Positions 5,224 through 40,541 of a stretch of DNA of 64,000 bases are shown one piece after another (within the stretch, counting starts at the first letter, position 1; each line of letters begins with the position of its first letter). Both the position numbers and the translations under genes were made by a program. Source of the DNA: Papaver somniferum (taxonomy: Eukaryota > Streptophyta > Magnoliopsida > Ranunculales > Papaveraceae); assembly GCF_003573695.1 (NCBI RefSeq), contig NC_039362.1:11955630-12019629 (forward strand). The letters are read 5' to 3'. Under the pieces are notes generated by a model. That model was given only the letters and a program-made list of their open reading frames with translations, searched no databases and was not told where the DNA came from.

Positions 5224-6526
5224 AGAGGTATGATGATCGAAATTTCTTCGGAGATGAAACTAACTTAGGAATGGAGGAGATATTGGCGCAAGTGATAAAC
5301 CCTAAATCTACAAAGATATATACAAGATATGGCAGACACTTATCTCCGATTCATTTATGAGTTTTACTGAAACCCTAAGTCTTTAACAAGGTCAAACTGG
5401 AGATGCGGAAGTAAAATAGTGCACTGGGGACTGACCAAGGTTAATTGTGAGCGGCAAGTCAGACGGCCCCATGTATTATACATCTTATGTTTGGATATTT
5501 TCATTAGATGAAGAACCACAAGGGTTAAGGGAGATTATAATGAGTTCGGCATGAAGAGTGGCTCGGTTTGCTTAATTCAATTAAGAAGAACTTGCATTAA
5601 TAAAATCTCTCATTCAAAAGGAAGACCTAAATACTTCAACCAAGTTGTTCGAATGAAGACATCTACTACGAATATTGAGAGTATTCAAATACTAAAAAAA
5701 AAAGAAAAAAGAGATCGAAAGTAAAGCTATTCGTCAGATCCATCTGAGTTGTCAGATTCGTCATCACTGTCTTTCTCAGAGTTGTCATCACTATCCTTCT
5801 CGGAATCCTCTTCTTCATAATCACTGTCATGACTATTAGTGACGTCTGGATGAGCATAAAAATCATCATATGAATCTTCTTCCGCTTCAGCTGCAATGTT
5901 CATGGGACTTTTGAATTCTGTGGCACACTGATCAGGCAAACCCCAGGCAGTTTCTTCTTCGGAAGAATCAACATCAGAATCAAAGGGTACCCCGTCCAAG
6001 AATTGGCGTTTTTCCCCAGCTCTCTGTATTTTGCGCCGGATTCGATCCTTTGTGCGCTGATGAGCATCTTTCTCATCGTCTTCGACTTTTCTTTTCATGA
6101 GTTCGGAGAAAGTAACTCTCTGCTCATTCGAGGGTACGCTGGTCTTTGCTCCCTCATCACGAATTACCTTGGCTCTCGGTTTAGCTATGGGAGCTTTGGG
6201 ATCTTTGTCAGAACCGGAGGAATAACTACGACCGCTGGAAGCCGACATTTTATGAAACCAGGAGCATGGAGTTATCGACATGCAGATAAATTCATCCAAA
6301 AAATGGTAATTCTTGAATCTTACCTCTTTCAATTTCACTATCAATAGCGGTTGCAATACAAGAGTTAACACACGAAATCAATTCGTTCCTTGAAATCTGC
6401 AATAACGAACAACGCTTCATTAGTGCATAAAAAATGATTTTCTCATAAAATCATATACATAATTTTCATAATGTGAACATTCACACAACTGAACTATGAT
6501 ATTTACAATAAGACATGACTTCATCA
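5224..6526 (-). repeat. Contig-end inverted copy of 41542-42843
   Basis: The whole segment is the reverse complement of 41542-42843. I found one base substitution (near 6017) and one A-homopolymer length difference (10 versus 9, near 5694-5703). Both copies end exactly at 1000-N gaps, which is the signature of an unmerged contig overlap and not of a biological inverted repeat. Confidence 0.93.
5727..6248 (-). CDS. Acidic antisense ORF of element A (first copy in the assembly)
   Basis: This encodes a 173-residue hydrophilic protein starting MSASSGRSYSSGSDKDPKAP. It has a basic, charged middle (about residues 45-80, VTFSELMKRKVEDDEKDAHQ onward, probably helical), a short DSDVDSSEEE patch, and a very acidic Asp/Glu/Ser tail after about residue 130. 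I recognise no domain. The start at 6248 was chosen because the frame upstream lacks an ATG and looks like leader. A leader exon (7194 to about 7330) and a 6324-6396 exon with GT-AG borders lie upstream. Between LTR and pol, in antisense to pol, it occupies the position of the additional antisense ORFs described for Tat-lineage Ty3/gypsy elements. It is probably the same physical gene as 41820-42341. Confidence 0.7.
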   Translation of the reverse strand: MSASSGRSYSSGSDKDPKAPIAKPRAKVIRDEGAKTSVPSNEQRVTFSELMKRKVEDDEKDAHQRTKDRIRRKIQRAGEKRQFLDGVPFDSDVDSSEEETAWGLPDQCATEFKSPMNIAAEAEEDSYDDFYAHPDVTNSHDSDYEEEDSEKDSDDNSEKDSDDESDNSDGSDE

Positions 6527-7330
6527 TAAATAAGTTGTCTAGTTTGAAGGTTACTCAAAACCCATGTCCTGATTTTACAAATAAATAATTAATGCAATTT
6601 GTTCATATAAATTTTCAAAATTTATCTAATAAGAACAAATCCATGTGAATAAAATATGTCATCATGTTTCACATAAAATATGTCACGGCTACATATATAT
6701 AAAGAAAATCTATTTTCCTTCGTATTAGAGTTTTATTAAAAACGAAGGTTTATGCTAGTTTTGTGAAAGCTCACACCTATTGTGATAAAATACTAATTCT
6801 CATGAAAGCTCATAAATAAAGTTTTATCACTAGACATAAGTTCACATACATAAAAATATATATCTATTTTCCTCGAATGAGCATCGTCTTCTAAAACGGG
6901 GTTTATTTCGGTTTTGTGAAAGCTCACATCTATTAAGGTAAAATCTTGGTTCACATGAAAGCTCATACACTAGCTTTTATCGCTGGACCTAAGTCCACAT
7001 ATATAAAGAAATCTCTCATAAATCAGGGATTTTTATTAGTTTTCAAAACTAACGATCGAACGAACATACGTTTGATAAAACAAGGGTTTTTCTACAAAGC
7101 TCACATCAACATATAAACATGTATAGAATTTCGACATGGTGAAAGCATGAAAAACTCATGAAATCAGCAAACTCCGAAAAAAAATCAACTCACCTGGGCG
7201 CCGACCGGAAATTGGTCGTCCGGTGATCGGACGGCGGCGGCAACTCCGACGAACTTCTACTGCTGCTCCTGATGCTCGGACGTGAGATGGGAGGAAGATG
7301 AAGATGGTGATCGGTTGTGAGAAGAAATAA
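6397..7330 (-). promoter_or_regulatory. Leader exon, intron and probable promoter of the acidic ORF
   Basis: On the - strand a GC-rich, purine/pyrimidine-skewed leader without an ATG (about 7330-7194) ends at a GTGAGT donor (7193). A long AT-rich intron runs to a TTATTGCAG acceptor (6397-6405). The intron holds a 153-bp direct repeat (first copies of TTGTGAAAGCTCACA at 6761 and 6914). This is inferred from splice signals only. Confidence 0.5.
6700..7020. repeat. 153-bp imperfect direct repeat in the leader intron
   Basis: The block GTGAAAGCTCACA(C/T)CTATT ... CATGAAAGCTCATA ... TTTTATC(A/G)CT occurs twice, at 6761 and 6914, with partial similarity on both sides. Nothing in it is coding. Confidence 0.7.
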
Positions 7331-7651
7331 AAAAAAAAAAGAAGAAAAGGATTAATTTCCTTTTACACCTAATTTTATTTCCAAAACATAATTCCATAAG
7401 GATTTCCCTTTTAGGCCCGACCCGTGAATCCTAAACCAACCAAGGTTCCACCATCGAACCAGCAGTTCTACATGGTTTTATGTTCGTTGGATGATGCTCT
7501 ATTATGCCACAAAAGTTTCCGCTCGAACCATGGTTTGCTCATTCAGTCTAAATCCGGTAATATCTTATCTTATGACTAAGTTCAATTACTTATTTTTATA
7601 CCTGGAAAGTCACCATTAAATGCTGAATGAGGAACATGACTGTTCCTCACT
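7331..7651. other. Element A internal sequence between antisense ORF and 3' LTR
   Basis: No gene is visible. The sequence contains poly-A tracts and TTGCTCATTC/GCTCGAACC words that resemble the LTR vocabulary, consistent with it belonging to the retroelement. Confidence 0.5.
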
Positions 7652-38017: not shown

Positions 38018-40498
38018 ATGGCGACGACTGCAAGACAATCAGAAGCTCAAGCTCAATTCCAGTTTACGAAGCAACCGTATGTCGAAGATGTTGGACCTAG
38101 GAAGATGTAAGCTCAATTCATTATTTTACTTTTGTTTTAGTCTGTTTTTGTTTGTAGCCTGAAAATTGTTTTGATTGATTTTTGTTTGTTGCAGTCAAAG
38201 TATAAAGTTCTCAATGATGTCTGGACCAGAAATCATGAAAGCTTCTGAAGTTCAAGTGTATGATAGTGGTTTTTATGATCAAAACATAAAGCCTAAGAAG
38301 AATGCATTGCTCGATTCTCGTATGGTATGTTGTATTTCTTTTAAACAACTTGTATAGTGTAGCCAATTATGGTTTTGTCTTGTGGTCATGACGTATGCTT
38401 GAACTATGTGGTTGATTTCAGGGTCCTGCTGGTAGCAAAATGGGTATCATTTGTGAAACATGCCATGGCGATTTTGCAAATTGCCCAGGACATTATGGAT
38501 ATTTGCATCTTTGCCTTCTGGTGTTCAATGTTGGATACTTCAATGCGATTCTTAATATTCTTAAATGCATATGTAAGGTATGGTAATTCTGCAATTTGAT
38601 TATGTTTTGCTTGCTTCACATTATGGTCACGGTTTTTCCATATTTACATTATACATTAGCTACTCATTGGTATGTACTAAATTTTGTATCTGTTACAGTC
38701 ATGTGCTCGAATACTACTGTCGGAGAAAGAACGTGTAAGTTACTTAAAGAAGATGAGGAATCCCAAAGCGGAGGCTTTGCAGAAGACTGCCACAGCCAAG
38801 GCGATATTAAAAAGTTGTAAACCCAAAACATGCAGCAGATGCGGATACATCAATGGTTTGCCTTCTATCCCTTTTTTAATACATTGATGATAGAGACTTA
38901 TCTTACTTCATTGATGGTAGAGTCGGAACTAGCAATGTTGCACACAGAAACATTTGTGTAATATTGTTCGTGCACTTTTCTGTGAGGATAGGCGAACAAT
39001 GGAAAATGGATCATCAAATTGTAGTAGTTCTTTAGAACACAGCATATACCAAATCTCACATAATTTCTGTTTGTACTTTATTCAAACATTGTAAAAGTAG
39101 TATGCTTTACTGGATAATAATTATGTTTAAAATAAATATAAGTATTAAATAATAATTCTGTGCACACAGCATCGAACCATCAGTCTCGAGCAATTGAGGC
39201 CGCATTGTAGACTCTGAATTAGCTAATTGGTATTTTGGTGGGTGCATAAGACTCTGCACTTCCCCAACCTGTCTGTGAGCTTGTTTCTGCTGACCTTTTC
39301 TGTCAGTTTAGGGGAATCGGGAAACTCTTCGAATAAATGAATAGAAACTAATGTTTAACATATTGAAACATGATTAAGGTCATGGGCACATGGCAAAGGT
39401 GATTATTTTCAAGATAAGTATGGTCGTCACTAAATTCGTATGCCAAATTTGTACTTGCAGCTGTAGTGAAAAAAGCAGGAACAGTTATGGGTATTATTCA
39501 TGACCGAAGCAAAAAATTTACGGATGACACAGATAAAGAATGCAAAGCAGCACTTTCTGGGACACGTATTCAAATTCTTAACCCTGTTAGAGTTCTTGGT
39601 CTCTTTAAAAGAATACTGGACCAGGTATAAGCTTTTATTGATGATGGTTTGGGTACATAAAATGGCCTTTCGAGATAAAATTCTCAAGCAAGATATATGA
39701 CACGATTCTTTAGCTTCATTCTCTATTCCTTGCACTTTTTTTTTTTTTTTCTGTTTGTTAATATTCCTTATCTTCGTATTGCAGGACTGTGAACTACTAT
39801 ATCTCAGTGATAGGCCTGAGAAACTTATTATTACAGACATTTTGGTGTCTCCTACAGCTATCCGTCCTTCTTCTTTTGTAGATGGAGGAAGAAGGTTGGT
39901 TATACATGGTTGAACATTTATGTCTTTAGTGCTGCTGTTTGAGTTACTCGTGATAATTTATTCTATGTGCTTAATTAGTGAATTGATTATCAATTTGCTT
40001 TTGCCGCAGTAACGAAGATGATATCACTTCTAAACTTAATACCATTATTCAAACAAATGCTTCCCTCCGACAAGACTTAGATGGCAAGAAGTCCACTTCC
40101 CAATGTTTGGTACGGATCAGAGCATAACATGGCTTATTGTTTACTTTTCAGTTTCTTGCGACATTTTTCAAACTATTATCACAATAGTCTGATTAGAAAA
40201 ATTGCTGCTTCTTGTTTCTTTGGTTCTGATGAATGTCTTTTATGCTCTAATCATAGTAACACTATTACTCGACTTGCAGGGTGATTGGGAACTACTCCAA
40301 GTTGAGGTTGCACAATATATTAATAGCGAAGTCCGTGGTGTCCCCCTAAGTATGATGCAGTCCTCAAAACCATTACGAGGGTTCGTCCAACGTCTCAAAG
40401 GGAAACAGGGGCGCTTTCGTGGGAACTTGTGTGGAAAACGTGTTGAGTATACTGCCAGGACTGTTATTTCCCCTGATCCTAATCTTAAAATTACAGAG
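38018..40498 (+). CDS. NRPC1: RNA polymerase III largest subunit, exons 1-8
   Basis: Exons: 38018-38106, 38195-38324, 38422-38577, 38699-38855, 39461-39624, 39785-39894, 40010-40109, 40280-40498, all GT-AG and in phase, no stops. They encode the start ([11 protein letters not shown]...), the clamp zinc site ([20 protein letters not shown], the CxxC...CxxH pattern), a second zinc pair ([10 protein letters not shown]), and the lid/rudder approach ([20 protein letters not shown]). This is the start of the catalytic subunit of nuclear RNA polymerase III. The 2.5 kb gene part ends at the 40542 gap, on the + strand, whereas the remaining exons are on the - strand at 2634-3948. It is a single gene once the middle contig is inverted. 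Confidence 0.95.
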
Positions 40499-40541
40499 GT
40501 TACTTGCTGTTTTTAGCTTTGACTATCTTTGGTTGTTGCAT

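What the first reader, a model, noticed from the sequence alone, without database searches (positions are those of the whole stretch)
5224..40541. Middle contig is probably assembled in the wrong orientation
Three independent signals agree. The contig's left end (5224-6526) is a near-perfect reverse complement of the right contig's start (41542-42843), and both ends stop exactly at 1000-N gaps. NRPC1 exons 1-8 run + into the right gap, while its trigger-loop exons lie - beside the left gap. Flipping brings two opposed 3.69 kb LTRs into direct orientation around one pol, with matching GAAGG target copies. With the flip, the right gap disappears and NRPC1 becomes one gene across one gap. Every statement about gene order and strand in this window depends on this.
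Basis: partly seen in the sequence, partly recalled or inferred. Interest (0 to 1): 0.92.

Follow-up and report, generated by a model that had tools for sequence, protein, structure and literature searches.

The report
A contig placed backwards in assembly
A 35-kilobase piece of opium poppy chromosome sequence very probably lies the wrong way round in this draft assembly, inside a repeatedly copied segment, so the apparent splitting of a gene and of a mobile element here is most likely an assembly artefact and not biology.

Summary
The window is C5:11955630-12019629 of a Papaver somniferum assembly. Contig B (5224-40541) lies between two 1000-N gaps. Its left end matches the reverse complement of C's start over 1302 bp (1 mismatch, 1 indel), with 29 private shared substitutions against 7 other copies.

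- The region is a segmental duplication. Four C5 loci holding both parts near each other show A, then reversed B. One continues without N into C's flank.
- The retrotransposon's target halves in B and C overlap by exactly 5 bp (GAAGG) on an uninterrupted homologous site.

Corrections: this NRPC1 copy is most likely broken, as in three relatives; a near-full-length match lies at C5:10.26 Mb. The left gap is about 2.79 kb. A second near-identical C-type end at C5:12.50 Mb means B might belong there, misplaced as well as turned.

A true staggered-break inversion is not formally excluded. Interest is low: orientation differences in the draft are already reported (PMC7055283).

The parts
1..4223 (+). 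Contig A; carries 3' exons of a broken NRPC1 copy on the minus strand (2633-3955)
   Evidence: colinear with related copies
4224..5223 (.). 1000-N gap; three related copies have 2785-2787 bp here, with four NRPC1 exon matches
5224..40541 (-). Contig B (41 N at 24787-24827); inferred true orientation relative to A and C is reverse complement
5224..6526 (.). B left end, dovetail overlap with the start of C (reverse complement)
41542..42843 (.). C left end, dovetail overlap with the B left end
7667..11359 (+). 3' LTR of retrotransposon E1
11360..11364 (.). Target-site copy GAAGG on the 3' side of E1
11360..12027 (-). Half of recipient element R next to the E1 insertion (gag-like start and LTR end)
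   Evidence: aligns to 48670-49337, 93.3%; gag-like is read from the ORF, no domain hit
49030..52718 (-). 5' LTR of E1
   Evidence: boundary at 49030 inferred from the LTR end at 11359
44302..48226 (-). E1 coding region in pieces; RNase H and integrase domains found
   Evidence: ORFs; Pfam (47228-47749 gave no family)
52719..55237 (+). Other half of recipient element R; 52719-52723 is the second GAAGG copy (reverse complement)
48670..48674 (.). Uninterrupted homologous target site inside E1 itself; the two halves of R overlap here by exactly 5 bp
38018..40501 (+). NRPC1 5' exons running to the right end of B
   Evidence: P0002 1-364, P0001 1-335
30062..34018 (+). Second, partial NRPC1 copy (P0001 150-537), 89% identical to the first over about 1.06 kb
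40542..41541 (.). 1000-N gap that would vanish if B is reversed and joins this C

Best explanation
Assembly artefact. Contig B was placed between A and C in reverse orientation within a draft scaffold of the opium poppy genome. The true order is A, about 2.79 kb of missing sequence, reverse-complemented B, then C, with B and C overlapping by 1.3 kb. Shown: the overlap, the colinearity with related loci, and the target-site test. Inferred: the cause. This is a young segmental duplication on C5 in which near-identical copies break assembly, and a 35-kb contig with ambiguous ends can be oriented wrongly. Also inferred, with less certainty: that B is the contig of this copy and not of the sister copy at 12.50 Mb.
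For: (1) Dovetail overlap: 1 mismatch and 1 indel in 1302 bp, with 29 private shared substitutions.
(2) Copies at C5:8.595-8.627, 11.720-11.749 and 12.234-12.245 Mb all have A's right end facing B's right end across 2785-2787 bp with no N. Window left flank, A and reverse-complemented B are colinear with all three, so B is the odd piece. The diverged NRPC1 locus at C5:10.265-10.277 Mb has the same A-then-reverse-B layout, as do, by listed places and strands, older relatives on C11 and C32402. No place listed in those calls with both parts close together, other than the window itself, shows the window's layout.
(3) The copy at 11.72 Mb continues from reverse-complemented B, 618 bp after B position 18858, into an R-family LTR and the flank that follows R on C, with no N.
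(4) The halves of R in B and C overlap by 5 bp, the size of the GAAGG target copies.
(5) A contiguous copy, 64001-71259, aligns C 43979-41542 and then B 5224-11359, overlapping by the same 1303 bp.
(6) Published: many order and orientation differences, and only about 4.7% of scaffold joins with more than one spanning PacBio read, in the Guo draft (PMC7055283, section 6 read).
Against: The three duplication copies are identical to each other at every variable column from 38478 to 40541 and at 3 of the 4 gap-free variable columns in A 1417-4223, and at most 5 mismatches apart in the missing piece. Copies 1 and 2 also show a 226-bp repeat at that block's edge. The assembler may have reused one sequence, so the three are not fully independent witnesses of the A-B junction. 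B and C differ by one base, and the sister contig at 12.50 Mb reads N from exactly that base, which hints at two loci. The 12.47-Mb and 12.234-Mb pieces lie in the opposite order to that expected of one locus. No reads were available.
Confidence: 0.9

Rival explanations
1. B is misplaced as well as turned: it belongs to a sister copy of the duplication whose C-type end lies at C5:12.47-12.502 Mb, and the true B of this window was not assembled or was collapsed.
For: The C-type copy at 12.47-12.502 Mb (minus) is 99.5-99.8% identical to C in four pieces read (14 mismatches in 3704 bp), includes the same E1 junction and the start of the overlap, and reads N from the base where B and C differ. Among 40 scored places (4969 candidates) only the window carries 6530-7660 above 91%. 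The part of B at 20300 to about 21760 is listed at three places only.
Against: At about 0.38% divergence some 5 differences would be expected over 1302 bp; one substitution is seen. The copy at 12.234 Mb already has its own version of B 36993-40541, only 99.2% identical to B. That copy and the 12.47 Mb piece do not form one locus as assembled: their order is the reverse of that expected. The scaffolder itself placed B between A and C.
Confidence: 0.13
2. A real, recent inversion of the B segment in this copy only, made by staggered breaks that left a 1.3-kb inverted duplication at both ends (mechanism recalled, not from a call).
For: Such inversions give the same geometry: inverted near-identical repeats at both ends and two split features. 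The related loci would then show the ancestral order.
Against: Both breakpoints would have to fall exactly on the two 1000-N gaps, and both contigs would have to end exactly at the duplicated segment's ends. A contig overlap needs no such coincidence.
Confidence: 0.03
3. The given orientation is right and the similarities are chance consequences of repeats.
For: The element is abundant (2552 and 4969 first-look candidates for two of its stretches).
Against: 29 private shared substitutions and an exact 5-bp target-site overlap; the related loci on C5 that hold both parts show the other orientation.
Confidence: 0.01

Closest known systems
Contig orientation differences in the Guo et al. opium poppy draft (PMC7055283)
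   Same: That paper reports many places where the draft and a Hi-C rescaffolding differ in contig order and orientation, and few draft joins crossed by PacBio reads (section 6 read). Its authors broke the draft at gaps of 1000 N or more (passage).
   Different: The parts I saw do not discuss this locus. That the present assembly is the Guo draft is inferred from species, size and gap style; its 34283 sequences differ from the 55,380 scaffolds of the 2021 version.
Nested LTR retrotransposons with 5-bp target-site duplication (Ty3/gypsy type)
   Same: LTR pair, RNase H followed by integrase, GAAGG target copies, insertion into another copy of the same family.
   Different: Nothing unusual once B is reversed. 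The type name and a Tat-like lineage are recalled, not tested.

Membership tests
Misoriented contig (assembly artefact) | Contig bounded by scaffold gaps on both sides | tested here: met
   1000 N on each side
Misoriented contig (assembly artefact) | End overlap with a neighbour only after reversal | tested here: met
   1301 matches, 1 mismatch, 1 indel; the unreversed right end of B has no match to the start of C
Misoriented contig (assembly artefact) | Related sequence elsewhere shows the reversed arrangement | tested here: met
   A-B: four C5 loci read; B-C: one contiguous locus. Three of the four may share a reused block
Misoriented contig (assembly artefact) | No reads support the given joins | not testable with these tools
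   no reads held
Single LTR retrotransposon E1 after reversal | Matching target-site duplication at the two outer LTR ends | tested here: met
   GAAGG
Single LTR retrotransposon E1 after reversal | Uninterrupted homologous site joins the two flanks | tested here: met
   48670-48674
Functional NRPC1 gene | All conserved regions of the polymerase III largest subunit present | tested here: not met
   In the three copies spanning the gap, matches skip P0001 576-811 and stop at 1039; the window part (2633-3955) also stops at 1039. The window's own gap sequence was not seen
True staggered-break inversion | Breakpoint junction sequence between NRPC1 and the 1.3-kb segment | not testable with these tools
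   both junctions would lie in N gaps

The most novel reading that the evidence does not exclude
A very recent real inversion in one copy of a multi-copy segmental duplication on poppy C5, with an inverted 1.3-kb duplication at its breakpoints, which split both a copy of NRPC1 and an LTR retrotransposon.
Probability: 0.03. Interest if true: 0.4.

Novelty: not a real feature. Interest (0 to 1): 0.18.

Why it matters
Anyone using this assembly would read wrong strands and order for the features in 5224-40541, a split NRPC1, and opposed LTRs that probably do not exist as such. More generally, near-identical segmental copies here seem to have produced a reversed contig, unlinked ends and possibly reused sequence, so copy number and synteny of this part of C5 should be taken from a newer long-read assembly.

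Tried and rejected
Frame-wise Pfam scans of the left flank L011 found no NRPC1 domain; the one weak hit, E 0.62, was below cut-off. Chance as the source of the overlap and the shared target copies was considered and rejected. I first read the LTR at C5:11.7499-11.7536 Mb as a possible empty site for E1; it is an LTR whose downstream flank is the same as after R on C, with no E1 site in the stretch read. After I took the overlap to be confined to B and C, and withdrew that. The CHM assembly is no independent check, since its superscaffolds were anchored and oriented on HN1 (PMC7775465, passages). The literature search listed nothing that I used. Searches with window 52730-55230, 42900-44300, 13000-17200, 15330-17200 and 37500-40541 did not complete. 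Name and accession of the first assembly are recalled; I did not read that paper.
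Full report
What the window is. The window is C5:11955630-12019629 of a 2.7-Gb assembly of 34283 contigs. A protein named from Papaver somniferum (P0002) is recorded on a contig of 216,867,838 bp, exactly the length of C5, so the genome is opium poppy. It has three pieces: A (1-4223), B (5224-40541) and C (41542 onward), separated by 1000-N gaps. A is preceded by a 1629-N gap.

The overlap. B's first 1303 bp are the reverse complement of C's first 1302 bp, with 1 mismatch and 1 indel, and the alignment ends exactly at both contig ends. 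Against seven other copies of this retrotransposon stretch (six of the loci fetched, plus the downstream copy), B and C share 29 substitutions found in none of the seven; no other pair of the nine shares more than 1. The mismatch is private to B; C and all seven others agree.

The element. Read in the reversed arrangement, LTR 52718-49030 (minus), the coding pieces 48226-44302 (minus; RNase H and integrase), the overlap, and LTR 7667-11359 (plus reading) form one element, E1, flanked by GAAGG. E1 lies inside another copy of the same family, R. The half of R on B (11360-12027) aligns to 48670-49337 and the half on C (52719 onward) aligns to 48674 and downward, so on this uninterrupted site they overlap by exactly 5 bp. 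The contiguous downstream part of R, 64001-71259, aligns first to C 43979-41542 and then to B 5224-11359, overlapping by the same 1303 bp.

Related loci. A, B and the left flank belong to a segmental duplication. Copies at C5:8.595-8.655 Mb, 11.695-11.749 Mb and 12.234-12.274 Mb align to the window's left flank, A and B, at about 95-100% in the main colinear blocks. In all three, A's right end faces B's right end across 2787, 2785 and 2786 bp, with no N in between. The left flank and A keep the window's relation, so B is the reversed piece. A diverged NRPC1 locus at C5:10.265-10.277 Mb has the same relation. By listed places and strands so do C11:68.31-68.32 Mb and C32402:2.756-2.766 Mb, whose DNA I did not fetch and which may be one locus twice. 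In the 11.72-Mb copy, reverse-complemented B (to 18858) is followed after 618 bp by an R-family LTR and then by the flank that follows R on C (71260-72661, 95.8%), again without N. The same LTR-flank boundary was read at 8.41 and 12.47 Mb; the 9.81-Mb piece also aligns across it, at 96.5%. The pairs 8.41(-)/8.59(+) and 9.81(-)/9.84(+) lie in the order expected after reversal, but the DNA between was not read and the first pair is some 180 kb apart.

Results that cut the other way. The three copies are identical to each other at every variable column from 38478 to 40541 and at 3 of 4 gap-free variable columns in A 1417-4223; in the missing piece copies 2 and 3 have no mismatch, and copy 1 differs from each by 5. 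Copies 1 and 2 show a 226-bp repeat at the edge of that block. This looks like one sequence used more than once, so I do not count the three as independent for the junction itself. The copy at 12.234 Mb begins directly after a 1000-N gap, and the 8 kb before the gap matched none of the four blocks I compared it with. The 12.234-Mb (+) and 12.47-Mb (-) pieces lie in the opposite order to that expected of one locus.

A second possible partner for B. A copy of C lies at 12.47-12.502 Mb, minus. In four pieces read it differs from C by 14 of 3704 bases. It includes the E1-R boundary and the start of the overlap, has a run of 14 N in the A run, and reads N from the base where B and C differ and at 12503000-12503200. 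Runs of N in fetched DNA can also be withheld stretches, so the contig end there is likely, not shown. Overlap and target site therefore show that B continues into C-type sequence, not strictly into this C. The low number of B-C differences, the scaffolder's own placement, and the distinct version of B's right end in the 12.234-Mb copy favour this locus. Either way B is reversed relative to A and C as given.

NRPC1. The 5' exons on B (P0001 1-335) and the 3' exons on A (812-1039) would lie on one strand after reversal. In the three copies that span the gap, four further exon matches (to residue 575) lie in the missing piece, residues 576-811 have no match, and matches stop at 1039. This copy is therefore most likely a broken paralogue; its own gap sequence was not seen. 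Matches covering 1-1192 of 1193 lie at C5:10264609-10276044; whether that gene is functional was not tested. B also carries an extra partial copy at 30062-34018.

Published context. PMC8521590 (passages) and PMC11406182 (passages) describe later assemblies; PMC7775465 (passages) describes one oriented on HN1. I did not find this locus in those passages and made no dedicated search for it.

Verdict. An ordinary assembly artefact, well supported, with a residual doubt about which sister copy B belongs to.

Noticed in passing
window 1-40541; L009-L034: A segmental duplication of roughly 55 kb with four copies on C5 (8.60, 11.72, 11.96 and 12.23 Mb), in both orientations, about 95-100% identical in the main blocks, and further pieces at 8.41, 9.81 and 12.47 Mb.
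   Followed up: partly
L018 (C5:8625053), L021 (C5:11721890): A 226-bp direct repeat at the edge of a block that is nearly identical in three copies, possibly a seam left by reuse of one sequence in assembly.
   Followed up: partly
window 32867-33279: A 204-bp tandem duplication (96%) of an NRPC1 exon in the extra partial copy.
   Followed up: no
window 55233-61827: A second nested element with LTR-like direct repeats of 1.57 kb (94.6%) in the RNase H region of R; by eye its flanks share 4 of 5 target bases.
   Followed up: partly
C5:12225000-12233997 (L025-L026): Another 1000-N join next to a duplication copy; the sequence before the gap matched none of the four blocks compared, so this join may be wrong too.
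   Followed up: partly
window 12028-15327 and 17231-20204: Tandem duplicated F-box region (95.7% and 78% over two blocks); the duplication begins where the LTR remnant of R ends at 12027.
   Followed up: no
C11:68313290-68324679 and C32402:2755566-2766842: Two near-parallel sets of NRPC1 matches, the second on a separate contig, which may be one locus assembled twice.
   Followed up: no
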